Source: Candidatus Omnitrophota bacterium
GTDB taxonomy: Bacteria; Omnitrophota; Koll11; Gorgyraeales; Gorgyraeaceae
Direction of reading: 5' to 3'
DNA length: 5,931 nt
NCBI GenBank assembly: GCA_018818505.1
Contig: JAHIRR010000005.1
Location: 1-5,931 of the forward strand
Under the pieces are notes generated by a model. The model ran no database searches. It was not told where the DNA came from and worked only from the letters and a program-made list of their open reading frames with translations. Positions 1-5,931 of this stretch are shown here, one piece after another (position 1 is the stretch's first letter; each line of letters opens with the position of its first letter). Position numbers and translations under genes: made by a program.

Positions 1-2
1 CA

Positions 3-788
3 AAAGACTTAATTATCAACGTACTAGAAGCCCTTGAGCTTAAAGCAGATAATTTTGATATTGCATTATTTGAGAAATTTATTGATTATGAGTGGTATGG
101 AATTTATTCTCACGACCCAGAATATATAAGAATTTATTTAAGAATATTACAATACGCAATAAACCATGATAAAGTTTTTGCAGGAAAGCCTAAGGTTGTT
201 TTCCTTCCAAATCTAGATATAGACTATTCGCAATTTGGATTTAATTATTTCGACTTTACAAATAACAAAAGAAAATCGGTCGTAACAAACAGCAATATTT
301 ATATTATCAATACACCAAAGGGTTTCTACTGGAAAAGCATATTGGCACTTTCAGAAGTTCCTTTGGTTACTGGGGATAATTCTGTGACAGAGGCGTTAGC
401 TAATAGGCAGAGATTTTTTTATGAAATAGAGCCTCATAAAGCGGATTTTGCAACATCCTTACGTGATATGGCTAGATCAGGATTGACGGAAAGAGAAATA
501 GAAATCTACAGCCTTCTTCTGTTCCATAATCTTCCTGCCTATTTATCAAGCCATCACCCACAGTTTAATAGAAAGACACTAGAGTCAGAAATAGAAACTA
601 TGTTTGCATCGCTGGCTAGGATATTTACAGATTCTAATGCAAAGGAAATATTTATAAAAATAGGCAATAAAGTAATTGAAGCCAAAGGTAATGTTACTGA
701 TAAATTCATTAGAGTGATTCAGAAGAAAGAATGGTTGCAGTTAGATAAGATGAAGCAGGCAGTAGATAATATAGATATAAACATCTAG
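3..788 (+). CDS. 3' part of an unrecognised protein with a possible GT-B glycosyltransferase-like motif (5' end outside window)
   Basis: This frame is open from the window edge to the TAA at 786-788 and gives 261 residues of a C-terminal part; the true start lies upstream. I do not recognise the family with certainty. Visible residues 111-141 read as a hydrophobic segment (SILALSEVPLVTGDNS) followed by VTEAL and FFYE. This resembles the C-terminal nucleotide-sugar-binding stretch of GT-B glycosyltransferases, where a small, polar turn and an EA pair precede a short beta strand. An earlier VVFLPNLDIDY (65-75) could be a Rossmann-type strand. The last ~100 residues look helical and charged (EIETMFASLARIF, KVIEAKGNVTDKFIRVIQKKEW). 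There is no signal peptide or membrane segment in the visible part. An internal TTG at 342 is not a start, because the same frame continues upstream without a stop. The region is AT-richer than the genes to its right. The glycosyltransferase reading is an inference from a short motif; the coding call itself is firm. Confidence 0.8.
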   Translation, partial: KDLIINVLEALELKADNFDIALFEKFIDYEWYGIYSHDPEYIRIYLRILQYAINHDKVFAGKPKVVFLPNLDIDYSQFGFNYFDFTNNKRKSVVTNSNIYIINTPKGFYWKSILALSEVPLVTGDNSVTEALANRQRFFYEIEPHKADFATSLRDMARSGLTEREIEIYSLLLFHNLPAYLSSHHPQFNRKTLESEIETMFASLARIFTDSNAKEIFIKIGNKVIEAKGNVTDKFIRVIQKKEWLQLDKMKQAVDNIDINI

Positions 789-1203: not shown

Positions 1204-2709
1204 AGAACGATACTGTATCGCCTCTGATATATGATCTGTCTTGATATCCTCGCTTCCCTCGACATCCGCAATAGTCCTTGAAACCTTTAATATCTTATCA
1301 TAAGCCCTTGCGCTAAGGTTTAACTCTGTCATTGCCATTTTAAGAAGGTCTTTTTCCTCTTTGCCCAGGGCGCAATATTTACGGATTTGTCTATGTGACA
1401 TTGAGGAGTTACAAAATATGCCCTCATTCTTAAATCTTTCCCTCTGAATAGCCCTTGCTTTATTTACTCTTTCTCTTATTTGAGCCGACGTCTCACAGGG
1501 TCTATCACTTGCCAAATCTTTATATTCAATACGGGGCACTTCTATATGAATATCAATCCTATCTAATAAAGGTCCTGAAATCCTCGAGCGGTAAGCGTGG
1601 ATTTGGTTCGGCGTGCACCTGCACTGAGATTTAAGGTCGGAGAAATGCCCACACTTACATGGGTTCATCGAAGCCACAAGAGTAAACTTGGACGGGAATC
1701 TCATTGTGGCGCTTACCCTGGAAATAGTTACGTACCCGTCTTCAAGGGGCTGCCTCAGCGCCTCAAGGACATTCCTGTGAAATTCAGGCAGCTCATCCAT
1801 GAAAAGCACGCCGTTATGCGCCAGGCTTACCTCGCCAGGCTTTGGCGCGCTTCCTCCGCCAACAAGCGATGCGTCAGAAGAGGTGTGGTGCGGTGTCCTA
1901 AAAGGCCTTGTGTTTATTATTGCCTTTTTTGTTGGGACAAGGCCGCATATGCTGTATATCTTTGTGGTCTCAATAGCTTCTTCAAGTGTCATATCAGGCA
2001 TGATCGTGGGCAGCCTCTTAGCGAGCATTGTCTTTCCGCTGCCAGGAGGCCCTATCATGATGATATTATGGCCTCCTGCCGCAGCGATCTCCATGGCCCT
2101 TTTTGCATAGACCTGGCCTTTTACGTCTGAAAAATCGACTTCATAGTCGTGGTTTTGATTTAGATGAATCTCTGCAGTATAAGGCAAGGGCGAGAGAGAA
2201 TCCCCATAATTTATGAAATCGCACACGCTGCTGAGCCTGTCTACGGGATAGACTTCCAGGCCTTCTACTACGCTGGCCTCATATGCATTCTCTTCTGGCA
2301 GGATCAGTTTTTTATGCGAGTTCTTTAAGGATATTGCGATAGGCAGGACACCTTTTACAGGCCTTATCCTGCCATTCAGGGCAAGCTCTCCCAGAAATAC
2401 AAAATCCTTTATGTTCTTATAAGCTATCTGTTCAGATGCGACAAGTACGCCTATTGCAATAGGAAGATCAAAGCATGGGCCTTCTTTCTTTATATCGCAT
2501 GGCGCAAGATTTACTGTTATCTTTTTAGAAGGATACTTGAACTGACTGTTTTTTATAGCTGAGCGCACCCTGTCCCTGGATTCACGTATAGCAGTATCAG
2601 GAAGGCCTACAATAGTCACCTGCGGCAGTCCGCTCGCTATATCTACTTCAACCTCGATCTCTCTTGCCTCAATGCCAATAGTGGCTGCTGAAAATACCTT
2701 TGATAACAT
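1177..2709 (-). CDS. comM: YifB/ComM family Mg-chelatase-like AAA+ ATPase
   Basis: The protein has 510 residues, close to the usual ~500 of the family. Domain order is complete. Residues ~20-140 form the ChlI-like N-terminal domain ([23 protein letters not shown] and [20 protein letters not shown]). The AAA+ domain spans ~190-395, with Walker A GPPGSGKT at 220-227, Walker B VLFMDE at 301-306 and the arginine-finger region [11 protein letters not shown] at 378-388. The Mg-chelatase C-terminal helical domain spans ~405-503 ([21 protein letters not shown], ending YRSLDR). The cysteine cluster C351, C353, C363 and C365 around MNPCKCG may bind metal, as the family commonly shows. ComM of Vibrio cholerae is known to be a hexameric helicase that promotes branch migration during natural transformation; E. 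coli YifB is the same family. ATG 2709 was chosen because AAGGAGG sits 8 nt upstream and [15 protein letters not shown] is the usual family N-terminus; a TTG at 2781 would add 24 atypical residues. The gene is divergent from the barrel genes. I found no clear promoter for it. The cellular role here (DNA uptake or recombination) is inferred from the family. Confidence 0.96.
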
Positions 2710-2714
2710 ATAGA

Positions 2715-2724
2715 CCCCCTCCTT
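2715..2724 (-). promoter_or_regulatory. Shine-Dalgarno that fixes the ComM-like start
   Basis: Read on the minus strand, AAGGAGGGGG is followed by TCTAT and then ATG at 2709. This strong site at normal spacing decides for ATG 2709 over the upstream TTG at 2781. Confidence 0.88.
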
Positions 2725-2798
2725 ATGTATATAAGACACGGGAAGAGGGCGGTTTTCTTTCAATTTTTTTAAGAATGTCAAATTTTATGCTGGCTACC

Positions 2799-2827
2799 TT
2801 GACAATCCTTACAACGTAATGTATACT
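2799..2827 (+). promoter_or_regulatory. Sigma-70-type promoter of the barrel gene pair
   Basis: TTGACA (2799-2804, perfect -35) is followed by exactly 17 bp and TATACT (2822-2827, 5 of 6 to the -10 consensus). The predicted transcription start is near 2834. That gives a short leader of about 29 nt before ATG 2863. The strength of the match suggests high constitutive expression, as is common for major outer-membrane proteins. Confidence 0.85.
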
Positions 2828-2864
2828 TCATTATAAAATAAGCTGGAGTATTATACTTTATTAT
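2822..2864 (+). repeat. 13-bp direct repeat, offset 30 bp, spanning -10 box and start codon
   Basis: TATACTTCATTAT (2822-2834) and TATACTTTATTAT (2852-2864) match at 12 of 13 positions and start exactly 30 bp apart. The first copy contains the -10 box and predicted transcription start; the second runs into the ATG of the first barrel gene. It could be a paired operator, a local duplication, or chance in AT-rich DNA. Confidence 0.45.
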
Positions 2865-3720
2865 GAAGAAACTCTATATTTTATATTCTTTAGTGATTGT
2901 AGCTATATTTGTCAGTAGCGGGCTTGTGTTTGCTGCAACTGTGGGTAATTCTCTTGACCTTGATGTGCCAAATGTCTCTGCTATATTGAAACAGACGGCT
3001 GTGGATCAAGCCCTTGATGACTATGAACAGATGATAAAGATAAAGGCCTCGCTGGATATGGAATTTCTATTTGATAAGGATCTAAATGGGCCTAATGAAG
3101 TAGCAGGCGCTGAGCTAAAGGGAGAATGGAATATGGTAAAGCTGGGCGTTACTATTTTTGACAGGGTAGAGCCATATATCAAGATAGGCGCAGCAAGGTT
3201 AGATGCGAAGTGGAGACAGAATAGTGCATGGGACATAGAGGTTGCGTCTGATCAGGGTTTTGCATGGGGCGGTGGCATAAAGGGGATTATCTGGGATTTC
3301 GATGATCAAGGCCTTCGCCTGACAGGTGATGTTCAGTGTAGAATCGCGGATCTGGACGCTAGTGATATTGAGCGGGGAGGCGTTAGCATAACTGATACAG
3401 GCGCAGATTTTAAAGTAGAGGAATGGCAGGCAGCCATTGCTCTAAGTAAGAAGTATGAACTTCCTTTAAAATGGCAGAATATCTACTTAGTGCCTTATAC
3501 AGGTTTGACGTTTTCTGATTCAACGGTAGATGTAAGCTTTAAAAATCCAGATGATCCTGCGCAGGATTGGACGCTCTATGACGCGAATAATGAGTCTATG
3601 TTTGGTTTTTTTCTGGGATGCGATATTATGCCGACAATATCAAGCTCGTTTATATACAGCATAGAGGTCAGGCTTGTGAATGAGATGGCTCTTACGCTTG
3701 GCGGCGCCATGAAGTTTTGA
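2863..3720 (+). CDS. Secreted outer-membrane beta-barrel protein, first of a tandem paralogous pair
   Basis: The protein has 285 residues. A classic Sec signal peptide is visible: MKK, a hydrophobic core at 5-22, then VFA with likely cleavage after A24 (mature ATVGNS). The mature part is rich in alternating hydrophobic/polar strands and Gly/Asp turns (YIKIGAARLDAKW 105-117, EWQAAIALSKKYELPL 187-202, YLVPYTGLTFSD 208-219, FGFFLGCDIM 247-256). It ends in ALTLGGAMKF; a terminal phenylalanine after an amphipathic strand is the usual signal for BAM-dependent outer-membrane insertion. I cannot name a substrate or a known family; a small barrel of roughly 8-12 strands is a guess from length. The segment at 39-60, just after the mature N-terminus, looks like a periplasmic amphipathic helix. 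The start ATG 2863 is set by the signal peptide. GGAG at 2845-2848 is rather far away (14 nt). It is transcribed from the strong promoter at 2799-2827 and followed 14 bp later by its paralogue. Confidence 0.88.
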   Translation: MKKLYILYSLVIVAIFVSSGLVFAATVGNSLDLDVPNVSAILKQTAVDQALDDYEQMIKIKASLDMEFLFDKDLNGPNEVAGAELKGEWNMVKLGVTIFDRVEPYIKIGAARLDAKWRQNSAWDIEVASDQGFAWGGGIKGIIWDFDDQGLRLTGDVQCRIADLDASDIERGGVSITDTGADFKVEEWQAAIALSKKYELPLKWQNIYLVPYTGLTFSDSTVDVSFKNPDDPAQDWTLYDANNESMFGFFLGCDIMPTISSSFIYSIEVRLVNEMALTLGGAMKF

Positions 3721-3722
3721 GA

Positions 3723-3727
3723 GAGGG
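3723..3727 (+). promoter_or_regulatory. Shine-Dalgarno that fixes the second barrel start
   Basis: GAGGG lies 7 nt before ATG 3735. It excludes the TTG at 3717, which would overlap the stop codon of the previous gene and would put this site inside the coding region. Confidence 0.7.
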
Positions 3728-3734
3728 TATAAAA

Positions 3735-4580
3735 ATGAAAAAGATAATAATAATTTTATTTTTCCTGACCTTTGGTATCTCCTCGTTTGTGTTTGGAGCT
3801 ACAGTAGGCGGCCCTGATATGAGTATCCCAGATGAGTCGCTTTTTCTAAAGGAACAGGCAATAAAAAATTCCCTTGATAGTTTTGAAACAGAGATGAATA
3901 TAAAAGTCGGTCTAGACATGGAAATAGTTACCAAAAGAAAGCTTTCTTCTGCTGCAGATGTTACTGACGCTGAGCTGAGCGGCAGTAATTTCATGTTCAA
4001 GATCTCCGATAGTTATAAAGAGCTTATTGAGACCTACATAAAGATAGGGACATCCAGCCTTGAGGTTGAGTGGAGCCAGAATAATGATAAAGTCAAAGTG
4101 GAGTCAGATATTGGTATTGCCTGGGCCGCCGGCGCAAAGGCAAAGTTATGGACGCTGAAAAATTATAACGTTGATCTTACAATGGATTTACAATACAGGC
4201 ATACTAGCCTGGGTTTTGACAAGGCAAAGATAAACGGTTCCGTATCAGCAGCTTCTCGCATTAACGAGGATTTCACAATAAGCGAATGGCAGACGAGTTT
4301 ACTAGCCAGCAAGAAATACATTATTCCTTTAGGAGTAAACGATTGCTACGTTATTCCGTATGGCGGCCTGACTTATTTAGCGTCAGACGTGGATTTGAGT
4401 TTTACGCGGTCTACTTCCGGCCAGCTTTATTCTCTATATAACGCGGATGATGAAAATGACTTTGGTGTTGTGCTTGGCTGTGATATAATGCCGTTCTATT
4501 TGAGCTACTATCTTCTGAACTTTGAGCTCAGGCTCCTGAATGAGACTGCCCTGACCCTTGGCGGCACAGTGAAGTTCTAA
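3735..4580 (+). CDS. Secreted outer-membrane beta-barrel protein, second of a tandem paralogous pair
   Basis: The protein has 281 residues and is a clear homologue of the preceding gene product over its whole length. The signal peptide is MKK plus a hydrophobic core, with likely cleavage after G21 (mature ATVGGPD, the same ATVG start as its neighbour). Blocks shared in order are LDME (60-63), AEL-x-G (79-83), YIKIG (101-105) followed by L-x-x-x-W-x-QN, EWQ with SKKY-x-x-PL (184-199), PYGGLTY (208-214), LYNADDE with FG and LGCDIMP (234-253), and E-x-RL-x-NE-x-ALTLGG at the end. The final residue is phenylalanine, as expected for a BAM-inserted barrel. The pair is diverged (identity about a third by eye), so the duplication is old and both copies appear maintained. 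Loops differ: this copy has an insertion-like KAKINGSVSAASRI stretch (163-176), and the DDPAQDW loop of the first copy is replaced by RSTSGQ. Start ATG 3735 follows GAGGG at 3723-3727. It is co-transcribed with the first copy. The substrate or ligand is unknown. Confidence 0.88.
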   Translation: MKKIIIILFFLTFGISSFVFGATVGGPDMSIPDESLFLKEQAIKNSLDSFETEMNIKVGLDMEIVTKRKLSSAADVTDAELSGSNFMFKISDSYKELIETYIKIGTSSLEVEWSQNNDKVKVESDIGIAWAAGAKAKLWTLKNYNVDLTMDLQYRHTSLGFDKAKINGSVSAASRINEDFTISEWQTSLLASKKYIIPLGVNDCYVIPYGGLTYLASDVDLSFTRSTSGQLYSLYNADDENDFGVVLGCDIMPFYLSYYLLNFELRLLNETALTLGGTVKF

Positions 4581-4600
4581 ACAGTATCCCATCTTTTTCC

Positions 4601-4630
4601 TTGCTATAGTTCCTATCCATTATATATAAT
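4601..4630 (+). promoter_or_regulatory. Possible promoter for the divergent-PAP2 / L,D-transpeptidase genes
   Basis: TTGCTA (4601-4606, 4 of 6 to the -35 consensus), an 18-bp spacer and a perfect TATAAT (4625-4630) lie in the gap after the second barrel gene. Transcription would start near 4637, at the foot of the palindrome at 4640-4691, so the message would carry that hairpin at its 5' end. The surrounding run of TA repeats makes a chance -10 match easy, so support is moderate. Confidence 0.5.
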
Positions 4631-4639
4631 GTTAAAGCT

Positions 4640-4691
4640 ACCTGTTCCACCGCGTAGGTGGAATTAATTCCACCTACGCGGTGGAACAGGT
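4640..4691. repeat. Perfect 52-bp loopless palindrome with nested hairpins
   Basis: Bases 4640-4665 are the exact reverse complement of 4666-4691: 26-bp arms, no mismatch and no spacer, centred on AATTAATT. Each arm contains its own smaller inverted repeat. TTCCACC, GCGTA and GGTGGAA occupy 4645-4663; TTCCACC, TACGC and GGTGGAA occupy 4668-4686. The element can therefore fold as one long hairpin/cruciform or as two tandem 19-nt hairpins separated by TTAA. A CTA triplet flanks it on both sides (4638-4640 and 4692-4694, the first overlapping the palindrome by one base), which could be a short target duplication or chance. It lies between two genes, contains no coding sequence and has no T-tract directly after it. 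It may be a REP/MITE-like dispersed element, a 5' mRNA stabiliser or a bidirectional transcription barrier. Confidence 0.97.
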
Positions 4692-4699
4692 CTAAATTT

Positions 4700-4705
4700 G
4701 GAGGG
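4700..4705 (+). promoter_or_regulatory. Shine-Dalgarno that fixes the GTG start of the divergent-PAP2 gene
   Basis: GGAGGG ends 4 nt before GTG 4710. The alternative TTG at 4698 would place this site inside the gene and has no site of its own; the long palindrome lies immediately upstream of it. Confidence 0.78.
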
Positions 4706-4709
4706 TGAA

Positions 4710-5156
4710 GTGGATTTTTTTGTAGACTTAGGGAAAAATCAGATGTTTTTGACTGCCTCGTTAGCATGGCTTTTAGCGCAGACCATAAAGGTGGCAATAG
4801 GTGTGATACGCGAGAAGCGGTTTAACTTTAAATGGTTCGTGGGGGCAGGGGGCATGCCGAGTTCTCATGCCGCTACTGTGGCAGCGCTTGCCGCTTCTAT
4901 TGGATTCACCTTTGGTTTTTCGTCGGCATTTTTCGCGTTCGCGTTTTTCATCGCGTTTATCATAATGTTTGATGCCCAGGGTGTGCGGCGGCAAAGCGGC
5001 CAGCAGGCAGAGATACTCAATAAGATGATAGAGGATATTTACTTACAGAAGGGCGTTAAGCAGGACCGCCTTATAGCGTTATTAGGCCATACGCCTATAC
5101 AGGTATTCATAGGCGCTGCATTAGGTATTCTTGTTGCGATTTTTTGTTACAGATAA
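4710..5156 (+). CDS. Divergent PAP2 family membrane protein (YuiD/DUF212-like)
   Basis: The protein has 148 residues, close to Bacillus YuiD-type proteins (~150-160). The family signatures are present: an N-terminal membrane helix with AWLLAQTIKV (18-27), the GGMPSSHAATVAALA block (~46-60), a second hydrophobic region rich in Phe/Ala (~64-86), FDAQGVRRQSGQQAEILN (~87-104) and LLGHTPIQVFIGAALGILVA near the C-terminus. PAP2 enzymes are lipid or acid phosphatases. The divergent family keeps the PSSH motif and a DAxGVR motif but lacks the standard upstream K-x6-RP motif, so its activity and substrate are not established; action on a membrane phospholipid or isoprenoid phosphate is inferred from the superfamily. 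It has three or four membrane segments and would sit in the inner membrane. The start is GTG 4710 after GGAGGG. The next gene begins 15 bp after its stop, which points to an operon with the L,D-transpeptidase gene. Confidence 0.92.
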   Translation: MDFFVDLGKNQMFLTASLAWLLAQTIKVAIGVIREKRFNFKWFVGAGGMPSSHAATVAALAASIGFTFGFSSAFFAFAFFIAFIIMFDAQGVRRQSGQQAEILNKMIEDIYLQKGVKQDRLIALLGHTPIQVFIGAALGILVAIFCYR

Positions 5157-5171
5157 AATATGGAGGATAGA

Positions 5172-5931
5172 GTGAATAGTAAACTGGTTGGTGCGGGGAT
5201 TGGCTTGGCGTTGATATTGGTATTGATAGTTATAGTATTCAGTCCTAAGAATCAGGCTAAGATAGGGGGATTGTCAGATTTTAGATCTGTTAGGGAGTTG
5301 ATTTCAAAGGACAATCTGGATGAGGCAGAGAAAAAGATAGCTGAGCAGGCAGATAAAGATCCCAATTCAGCTGAAACAGGCAGGATCTATTTTGATCTCG
5401 CGAAATCTTACGAGGAAAAAAAGGAGATCGTTAAGGCAAGGGATGTCTATCAGTTGATATTGAGCAAATACCAGAATGTCGATAATATACTTCAGATACA
5501 GGAAAAACTAGGCGCGCTTAATACAGAGATACTCTTTTCTTCTATTATTACAGATACGGATGTGCTCTATCAGGTGGAGCCAGGCGATAGTCTTTCGAAA
5601 ATCGCGAAGAAATTCAAGACAACAATTGAACTTATAAAGGCTTCAAACTCACTCAAAGATAATACTATACTGGCCAATTCAAGGCTAAAGGTCTCGACTG
5701 CCAGATATAAGATATTGATAGACAAGTCTCAGAATCTTTTAACGATCTTTTCTGGCGATGAGGACATTGTAAAAGTCTACCCGGTTGCAACAGGCAAAAA
5801 TGGATCTACGCCAGTAGGGACTTTTACCATAATCAATAGAATGGAAGATCCTGTCTGGTATAAAGAAGGCGCGATAGTGCCTGCTGAGAGCCCTGAAAAT
5901 ATTCTTGGTTCGCGCTGGCTTGGGTTTTCTG
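5172..5931 (+). CDS. Membrane-anchored LysM and L,D-transpeptidase (YkuD) protein, 3' end outside window
   Basis: The first 253 residues are visible and the frame is open at the window end. GTG 5172 follows GGAGG (5162-5166) at 5 nt. Residues 7-23 form a hydrophobic N-terminal anchor or signal (GAGIGLALILVLIVIVF). Residues ~37-120 are helical with TPR-like character (LDEAEKKIAEQADKDP, ETGRIYFDLAKSYEEK, ARDVYQLILSKY). A LysM domain follows at ~132-174 (YQVEPGDSLSKIAKKFKTT with a hydrophobic core and ASNSLKDNTI); it would bind peptidoglycan glycan chains. The YkuD domain begins near 179 (KILIDKSQNLLTIF, YPVATGKNGSTPVGTF, ILGSRWLGF). L,D-transpeptidases make 3-3 peptide cross-links or attach lipoproteins to peptidoglycan using a catalytic cysteine in an HG...SxGC motif. 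That motif lies beyond the window, so catalytic competence cannot be judged here. It is probably co-transcribed with the divergent-PAP2 gene and acts in the periplasm. Confidence 0.93.
   Translation, partial: MNSKLVGAGIGLALILVLIVIVFSPKNQAKIGGLSDFRSVRELISKDNLDEAEKKIAEQADKDPNSAETGRIYFDLAKSYEEKKEIVKARDVYQLILSKYQNVDNILQIQEKLGALNTEILFSSIITDTDVLYQVEPGDSLSKIAKKFKTTIELIKASNSLKDNTILANSRLKVSTARYKILIDKSQNLLTIFSGDEDIVKVYPVATGKNGSTPVGTFTIINRMEDPVWYKEGAIVPAESPENILGSRWLGFS

What the first reader, a model, noticed from the sequence alone, without database searches (positions are those of the whole stretch)
4640..4691. Perfect 52-bp palindrome with two alternative folds
A mismatch-free, loopless 26-bp inverted repeat is rare by chance. 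Each arm is itself a 7-bp stem with a 5-nt loop, so TTCCACC/GGTGGAA occurs four times in alternating orientation. This dual fold (one long hairpin or two tandem hairpins) is typical of mobile palindromic units such as REP/MITE-like elements or of switchable RNA structures, and is not explained by any gene here. Perfect symmetry implies recent insertion, active conversion or selection.
Basis: partly seen in the sequence, partly recalled or inferred. Interest (0 to 1): 0.75.

Follow-up and report, generated by a model that had tools for sequence, protein, structure and literature searches.

The report
Mobile hairpin repeat of Omnitrophota bacteria
The perfect 52-letter palindrome is one copy of a family of small, apparently mobile DNA hairpins in uncultured Omnitrophota bacteria: a sister species lacks it at this spot but carries the identical sequence elsewhere, and similar hairpins flank a matching transposase gene in other members of the phylum.

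Summary
The palindrome is real: 4640-4691 is a loopless, mismatch-free 26-bp inverted repeat; window shuffles reach 9 bp. The window is Candidatus Omnitrophota. The closest of 39 genomes searched, G019 (87-89% nt identity), has an empty site here but carries the identical 52 bp at another locus; 15 further relatives lack it here. It is therefore a mobile insertion, not a conserved riboregulator. Related doublets share the anatomy ACC-N6-ACCNCGTAGGT-[apical palindrome]-ACCTACGNGGT-N6-GGT, lie mostly between genes and covary. One subfamily of REP-associated tyrosine transposase (RAYT) has this core near both gene ends in 12 of 30 loci, near at least one in 14; other Y1 transposases 1 of 56. Best reading: a REPIN-like doublet of REP units moved in trans by a RAYT, here inserted between the conserved promoter and the ribosome-binding site of a divergent-PAP2 gene. 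Unusual: single units carry GTAG in the hairpin loop, and stems differ from copy to copy. The window's own genome is not held, its cognate RAYT is unknown, and mobilisation by RAYT is inferred. New variant of a known kind.

The parts
4640..4691 (.). the whole element: perfect 52-bp palindrome, REPIN-like doublet of two inverted units
   Evidence: identical copy in G019 at another locus, empty site at the orthologous place
4640..4642 (+). terminal ACC (left end)
   Evidence: terminal ACC and/or GGT present in 48 of 48 non-G100 doublets, usually 6 nt from the core
4645..4663 (+). first unit: half-hairpin TTCCACC-GCGTA-GGTGGAA
4649..4659 (+). core ACCGCGTAGGT (family consensus ACCNCGTAGGT), holding GTAG at 4654-4657
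4660..4671 (.). inner palindrome GGAATTAATTCC, apex of the long hairpin
   Evidence: inner pairs covary across doublets
4668..4686 (-). second unit, inverted: half-hairpin TTCCACC-TACGC-GGTGGAA
4672..4682 (-). second core, inverted (ACCTACGCGGT on the + strand)
4689..4691 (+). terminal GGT (right end)
4601..4630 (+). promoter-like TTGCTA-18-TATAAT of the downstream gene, left intact by the insertion
   Evidence: TTGCCAT...TATATAAT-like block readable by eye upstream of the gene in 14 of 15 relatives and in G019
4700..4704 (+). GGAGG, presumed ribosome-binding site
   Evidence: read; GGAGG also in the aligned G019 sequence
4710..5156 (+). DUF212 / divergent PAP2 gene, host gene whose presumed 5' leader holds the element

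Best explanation
It is a non-autonomous mobile palindrome: a minimal REPIN-like doublet of two inverted REP-like units, from a family found in many Omnitrophota genomes. Inferred mechanism: when the DNA is single-stranded (replication or DNA uptake) the element folds; a RAYT (HUH/Y1 endonuclease) acting in trans recognises the hairpin with its NCGTA loop and conserved ACC/GGT pairs, cuts beside the element and joins it to a new, mostly intergenic, site. Shown: repeats at many loci; an empty site against an identical copy elsewhere in the sister genome; covarying stems; association of the same core with one RAYT subfamily in other Omnitrophota. Inferred: that a RAYT cuts it, the single-stranded route, and any effect on the host gene. 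Here it inserted between promoter and ribosome-binding site of the DUF212 gene, so the transcript probably begins with a very stable hairpin: tolerated, possibly stabilising the mRNA.
For: Empty site in G019 and an identical 52-bp copy in other flanks. 0 of 15 further relatives have it at this site. Core ACCNCGTAGGT far above the reversed-pattern control in some genomes: G100 406 vs 0, G018 80 vs 1, G329 75 vs 1, G006 64 vs 1, G019 16 vs 1. Fixed architecture with terminal ACC/GGT. Covariation of inner pairs, outer pair 1 and the free core base. Mostly intergenic. Core near both ends of 12 of 30 loci of a RAYT subfamily, against 0 of 56 other Y1 loci on both sides and 1 of 56 on one; shared hairpin words of 11 nt or more between the two flanks in 17 of 29 evaluable subfamily loci against 5 of 52 others. 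That lineage resembles E. coli TnpA_REP (4er8, E 2e-5) and the NCBIfam REP-associated tyrosine transposase model. In G125 the RAYT is flanked by the same unit that the genome carries 12 times, two of the 12 being these flanks.
Against: The window's genome is not held, so its copy number and RAYT are unknown. In sister G019 the RAYT of this subfamily is flanked by hairpins with another core (L314), so no enzyme is matched to the window's unit. 16 of 30 subfamily loci lack the CGTA core. The CT-CT flanks that fit known RAYT cutting are not general: CT precedes the terminus at 8 of 71 ends. The NCBIfam score is below its cut-off (69.4 against 80). Many genomes have the core only at control level. 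Outer pairs 2-9 are not above shuffle outside G100. Only one empty site was examined.
Confidence: 0.72

Rival explanations
1. A cis-regulatory RNA or terminator of the DUF212 gene: the hairpin near the start of the transcript tunes expression and is kept by selection at this locus.
For: It lies between a conserved promoter-like block and the RBS and would be a very stable RNA hairpin.
Against: Absent from the orthologous site in G019 and in 15 of 15 relatives; the same sequence sits at another locus in G019; no Rfam match above threshold; it is followed by CTAAATTTGG, not a T run, and is not in the terminator-like list.
Confidence: 0.05
2. A palindrome made on the spot by template switching or gene conversion around a shorter hairpin, without any mobility of the doublet.
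For: Several copies have arms matched far beyond the core (for example L214, L217, L239 in G100), and changes appear in both arms together (L223), as conversion between arms would give.
Against: An identical 52-bp element at another locus and an empty site at this one need copying between loci; the fixed ACC-N6-core spacing is not expected from local errors. Conversion may still act on top of mobility to keep arms perfect.
Confidence: 0.08
3. A MITE or satellite moved by another enzyme (a DDE transposase, an IS110-like recombinase or a different Y1 enzyme) rather than by the RAYT subfamily named here.
For: No cognate RAYT is known for the window or for G019; each genome searched has Y1 genes of several kinds.
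Against: No clear target duplication beyond a possible CT; the core is specifically near this RAYT subfamily. Other transposase families were not searched for.
Confidence: 0.13
4. An assembly artefact (foldback chimera).
For: Perfect loopless palindromes are a known chimera signature (recalled, from no call); no reads were available.
Against: The identical 52 bp in a separate assembly at another locus; many doublets of the same design in other assemblies; different sequence continues on the two sides, collinear with G019.
Confidence: 0.02

Closest known systems
REPINs (REP doublets forming hairpins; Bertels and Rainey 2011, PMC3116915, passages read)
   Same: Two inverted short palindromic units that fold either as one long hairpin or as two small ones; dispersed, intergenic, covarying; units also flank RAYT genes.
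   Different: 52 bp instead of about 100 bp (the paper's GI ends lie 71 bp apart); perfect and loopless here; the conserved part is an 11-nt core with an NCGTA loop rather than a fixed 16-mer.
GTAG-tagged REPs and their HH/TT dimers (Di Nocera 2013, PMC3733652; abstract, sections 5, 14, 16 and part 1 of 17 read)
   Same: Short palindromes with GTAG, subfamilies with complementary stem changes, dimers with GTAG inside or outside, RAYT association, extragenic.
   Different: In single units GTAG spans the hairpin loop instead of an unpaired end; in the long fold it is paired. The 24 families' consensus figure could not be seen, so identity with a listed family was not tested.
'Double foot' REPs of TnpA subclass 2.4 (Quentin 2018, PMC6006769; passages, sections 13 and 17 read)
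   Same: The centre GTAG-GTGGAATTAATTCCAC-CTAC has GTAG 5' and its complement 3' of a hairpin, and formally fits the published search rule (7-bp stem, 2-nt loop, three of the first four stem bases G/C).
   Different: Here the double foot is embedded in longer outer arms ending in ACC/GGT, and the associated transposase has other key motifs (THxH, W[EQ], YxHLNP) than subclass 2.4 (NH[IFV]H, WQ, YIxNNP).
E. coli TnpA_REP and its REP (structure 4er8; Corneloup 2021, PMC8266576, passages read)
   Same: Related Y1 enzyme; hairpin plus GTAG as substrate; reported cleavage at CT, and CT lies on both sides of the window's element.
   Different: E. coli REPs carry GTAG 5' of a bulged hairpin; here a loop motif, and no general CT preference.

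Membership tests
REPIN | two inverted REP units close together that can pair into one hairpin | tested here: met
REPIN | the doublet behaves as the mobile unit | tested here: met
   one empty site against an identical whole doublet elsewhere; a single case
REPIN | many extragenic copies in the same genome | not testable with these tools
   window's genome not held; sister G019 has 16 cores, 4 exact doublets; G100 hundreds
REPIN | unit also flanks a RAYT gene of the same genome | tested here: inconclusive
   met for other genomes, not for the window (no genome) nor for sister G019 (other core, L314)
GTAG-tagged REP | GTAG unpaired at one end of the stem-loop | tested here: not met
   GTAG 4654-4657 spans loop and stem of the half-hairpin and is paired in the long fold
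GTAG-tagged REP | extragenic, repeated, with complementary stem variation | tested here: met
   for the family in relatives
Double foot REP (subclass 2.4) | GT[AG]G 5' and C[TC]AC 3' of a hairpin | tested here: met
   4654-4677 read, rule
Double foot REP (subclass 2.4) | associated TnpA with motifs NH[IFV]H, WQ, YIxNNP | tested here: not met
   associated lineage shows THxH, W[EQ], YxHLNP (against Table 1); subclass profile HMMs were not available
RAYT (for the associated transposase, not in the window) | Y1 domain with HUH and Y---NP motifs | tested here: met
   PF01797; HxH and Y-x-H-L-N-P invariant in 8 aligned rows
RAYT (for the associated transposase, not in the window) | reaches the NCBIfam REP-associated tyrosine transposase cut-off | tested here: not met
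   69.4 bits against 80
Intrinsic terminator | hairpin followed by a T run | tested here: not met
   not among the 5 terminator-like sites; followed by CTAAATTTGG
Known structured RNA (Rfam 15) | score over a family's gathering threshold | tested here: not met

The most novel reading that the evidence does not exclude
A REP system in which the transposase reads an NCGTA loop rather than a foot tag, leaving the stems free to drift into covarying 'dialects', in a RAYT lineage whose motifs are nearest subclass 2.1, reported to have no REPs; and in the window's clade some RAYT and other Y1 genes share a promoter-like box (TTGAAAG-N15-18-GTGTCWTATA) with comM, dprA and a pilin-like gene, so the hairpins would be moved mainly during DNA uptake, when single-stranded DNA is in the cell.
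Probability: 0.25. Interest if true: 0.72.

Novelty: new variant of a known kind. Interest (0 to 1): 0.45.

Why it matters
REP/RAYT systems were worked out mostly with GTAG at the hairpin foot, chiefly in Proteobacteria. A family with drifting stems and a fixed loop core gives a natural panel of RAYT-substrate pairs and makes it testable how these transposase relatives recognise hairpins. The published automatic rule (GTAG just 5' of the hairpin) would miss the single units seen here, so such repeats may be undercounted in other deep phyla. If the box shared with competence genes holds up, it would tie REP mobility to natural transformation.

Tried and rejected
Own-genome copy number: not possible, no genome held. 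Rfam: only far-sub-threshold hits to a microRNA model. Viral contigs: 0 matches to TTCCACCNCGTAGGTGGAA, so no sign of a phage carrier there. Insertion into pre-existing palindromes: suggested by G100 copies with extended outer stems, not upheld outside G100, where outer pairs 2-9 are not above shuffle. CT target rule: fits the window, not the family. RAYT tree against core type: at least 7 changes, shuffled mean 10.3, 11 and 15 of 500 shuffles as low for the two groups: clustered, but the core type changed repeatedly.

Controls and dropped rows. One search was given 60 other Y1 loci: 2 had no ORF found, 58 were tested; L181 (same gene as L301) and L131 (same place as L307) belong to the subfamily and were dropped, leaving 56, of which L127 has the core on one side. 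An entry in my notebook says 57; 56 is right. One search used the first Met as start and so missed some flanks: 17 of 29 evaluable subfamily loci (30 given) share a hairpin word of 11 nt or more between flanks; of the others 54 were evaluable of 60, 52 after dropping L181 and L131, and 5 reach 11 nt (L118, L123, L179, L185, L189). The doublets were chosen by exact cores on both sides, so core columns other than N are paired by construction; the 111 pairs include overlapping pairs within clusters. The 40 stretches were picked from the listing because two inverted cores lay close together, so they do not measure how common doublets are. In G019, where all 16 cores were read, 8 sit in 4 exact doublets, 3 have a degenerate inverted partner and 5 are single.

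Papers: none held both RAYT and Omnitrophica; the listings showed none whose title or abstract start is about REPs in this phylum. Subscription papers and preprints are not covered.

Full report
1. The observation. Window 4640-4691 is ACCTG-TTCCACCGCGTAGGTGGAA-TTAA-TTCCACCTACGCGGTGGAA-CAGGT, identical to its reverse complement; the symmetry stops at both ends, and the longest perfect palindrome arm in 100 shuffles of the window was 9 bp. As RNA (with flanks) it folds to -48.6 kcal/mol (z -9.7); as DNA the long hairpin (-31.5) far outweighs the half-hairpins (-6.3 and -5.9). No Rfam family reaches threshold and no tRNA gene is found.

2. Where it lies. The window encodes a ComM-like Mg-chelatase (ORF 1177-2781, minus), two ORFs of about 285 aa that resemble each other in DNA and have no Pfam match, a DUF212 (divergent PAP2) protein and a LysM/YkuD protein. 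The best DUF212 relatives that carry a name are Candidatus Omnitrophota. The element begins 9 nt past the promoter-like TTGCTA-18-TATAAT; a TTGCCAT...TATATAAT-like block is readable at that place in 14 of 15 relatives and in G019 (by eye). It ends 8 nt before GGAGG and 18 nt before the GTG start. So it sits in the presumed 5' leader and leaves promoter and RBS intact.

3. Mobile. No genome is held for the window. Relatives came from one genome-contig scan with DUF212. Of 39 genomes searched with the window's DNA, G019 is the closest: two stretches of 89 and 87% identity covering window 1658-5931. At the orthologous place it reads AATGTTATACAACTTAATTTTAGGAGG where the window reads AATGTTAAAGCT-[52 bp]-CTAAATTTGGAGG. 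G019 carries the identical 52 bp at C1:53064-53115 (100% over 52; L093), in other flanks, and variants with other stems, such as ACCTGTCCA-ACCGCGTAGGT-TGGATTTAAATCCA-ACCTACGCGGT-TGGACAGGT on C10. None of 15 other relatives has the core, or a perfect hairpin arm over 8 bp, in the 130 nt upstream of the gene. The window has CT on both sides and the empty site one CT, which would fit cutting at CT as reported for RAYTs (PMC8266576, passages); but CT precedes the terminus at only 8 of 71 ends counted in the 48 doublets.

4. A family. TTCCACCNNNNNGGTGGAA occurs in 22 of 147 relatives, with no control match; G100 holds 72 exact places, and 95 within one mismatch of TTCCACCTCGTAGGTGGAA. More widely shared is the core ACCNCGTAGGT: 263 of 384 Omnitrophota genomes have at least one match, but many are at the level of the reversed-pattern control. 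Counts (both strands, against control) reach 406 vs 0 in G100, 80 vs 1 in G018, 75 vs 1 in G329, 64 vs 1 in G006, 31 vs 1 in G009 and 16 vs 1 in G019. Stems outside the core differ between genomes and between copies.

5. Anatomy. Among the loci held there were 111 close inverted pairs of exact cores (overlapping pairs within clusters included): 90 with GTAG towards the inside, 21 with GTAG towards the outside; the commonest spacings of the first kind are 22 (19 pairs), 25 (19), 23 (12) and 14 (11, all in G100). All 48 first-kind doublets outside G100 with spacing 21-30 have a terminal ACC on the left and/or GGT on the right 3-12 nt from the core (shuffled flanks: mean 12, maximum 21); 55 of 84 such distances are exactly 6 nt. 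The window fits on both sides: ACC-TGTTCC-ACCGCGTAGGT-GGAATTAATTCC-ACCTACGCGGT-GGAACA-GGT, so its palindrome ends are the element ends. Covariation in these 48: inner pairs 1-4 form in 47, 48, 48 and 47 rows, with changes on both sides (shuffled means 22.8, 37.3, 21.0, 29.7); the free core base pairs in 48 (22.2), outer pair 1 in 47 (23.0), and the half-hairpin pair next to ACC/GGT in 46 and 47 (about 23), with weaker excess at half-hairpin pair 4 (21 and 31; shuffled 11.7 and 23.6). Outer pairs 2-9 are not above shuffle outside G100, though pairs 2-8 form in 13-16 of G100's 17 doublets. Both folds are therefore kept in part; the window's fully paired outer arms and 7-bp half-hairpins are an especially regular case. 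These shuffles do not allow for relatedness.

6. Location. In 52 stretches of G100, 22 of 143 cores lie in ORFs of at least 100 aa, which cover 81.5% of that sequence; in loci of six other genomes 12 of 47 against 89.9%. The stretches were chosen around elements, cores cluster, and six-frame ORFs overstate coding, so the probabilities printed there should not be taken literally.

7. Transposase. Y1 transposase domains (PF01797) occur in 15 of 15 and 9 of 9 genomes searched. One 220-aa lineage (L239:1803-2465 in G100) has such palindromes on both sides, as does a homologue in G127 (L181 = L301). It matches the NCBIfam REP-associated tyrosine transposase model below its cut-off (69.4 of 80 bits), PF01797 above it and E. 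coli TnpA_REP (4er8, E 2e-5); HxH and Y-x-H-L-N-P are invariant in the 8 rows aligned. It has matches at E <= 1e-3 in 118 of 147 relatives, most of them weak. Of the 30 loci returned, 12 have the core ACCNCGTAGGT within about 300 nt of both gene ends and 14 near at least one (two of them with a flank cut short by the contig end); of 56 other Y1 loci, 1 has it on one side. Of the other 16, 15 show hairpins with other loops on both sides by eye, L307 on one. In G125 the RAYT (L300) is flanked by TTCCACCCCAGGGGTGGAA, the unit type of which the genome has 12 places, two of them these flanks. In sister G019, however, the RAYT's flanking hairpins have a different core (L314), so the window's cognate enzyme is not identified. 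On a tree of the 30, core type changes at least 7 times (shuffled mean 10.3). Of 1479 database hits 120 were listed; among those with names are also Nitrospirae, Auribacterota and Makaraimicrobium.

8. Comparison. It works like a REPIN (PMC3116915, passages), including the two alternative folds discussed there. It is not a strict GTAG-tagged REP as in PMC3733652, because the tag lies in the loop or is paired. Its centre fits the 'double foot' form of PMC6006769, which those authors note could arise by central deletion between inverted REPs; but the enzyme's motifs differ from subclass 2.4 and are nearest 2.1, for which that paper found no REPs. The subclass was judged by motif and length only. 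PMC2817692, PMC3686654 and PMC8049555 were seen only in search listings.

9. A side lead. The stretch just upstream of comM in the window (2730-2763, minus strand) matches TTGAAAG-N15-18-GTGTCWTATA. This occurs 92 times in the 19 genomes closest to the window (1-10 each, 19 of 19) and twice in 128 others, with 1 control match among 147. Of 93 listed sites (G098's left out), 15 lie within 500 nt upstream of a Y1 domain on the same strand (Y1 list incomplete for G016-G018), and 7 at comM orthologues by position; others precede dprA, a gene with a pilin-type N-terminus, ORF6N, AbiEi and DUF1016 genes. That suggests a clade-specific regulon joining competence genes and Y1 enzymes; it rests on sequence alone.

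10. Verdict. A REPIN-like mobile element of a new variant, with RAYT mobilisation inferred. The regulatory-RNA, local-origin and artefact readings fit poorly.

Noticed in passing
window 2730-2763, minus strand, 20 nt upstream of the comM-like gene's ATG (2709): TTGAAAG-N17-GTGTCTTATA: one of 92 sites in the 19 genomes closest to the window, 2 in 128 others, 1 control match in 147. It also precedes RAYT and other Y1 transposase genes (15 of 93 listed sites), dprA, a pilin-like gene, ORF6N, AbiEi and DUF1016 genes: a possible competence-type regulon.
   Followed up: partly
L266/L185, G019:C29:67582-67914, beside the orthologue of the window's comM locus: A Y1 transposase gene whose two flanks share GTAGGCCAGGTTTAAACCTGGC; window-G019 homology starts only at window 1658, so the two genomes differ beyond comM's 3' part.
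   Followed up: no
G100 loci such as L226, L238, L239, L242: Other dispersed palindromes in the same genome: GGGCACGGCATGCCGTGCCC, and ACCTCGTAGGT-core elements with AACA/TGTT or CCAA/TTGG arms beside the TTCC/GGAA ones.
   Followed up: partly
L001 1663-2284 and 3857-3886; L012 1807-1888; L022 10448-10507; L018 5340-5367; L078 3564-3591: Loopless palindromes with GTAG or GCAG on one arm and its complement on the other, without the ACCNCGTAGGT core: perhaps other REP-like families of the phylum.
   Followed up: no
window 2863-3720 and 3717-4580: Two adjacent ORFs of about 285 aa (start chosen by the tool) that resemble each other (79% over 53 nt at their 3' ends), with signal-peptide-like starts and no Pfam match; possibly a duplicated outer-membrane protein gene.
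   Followed up: no
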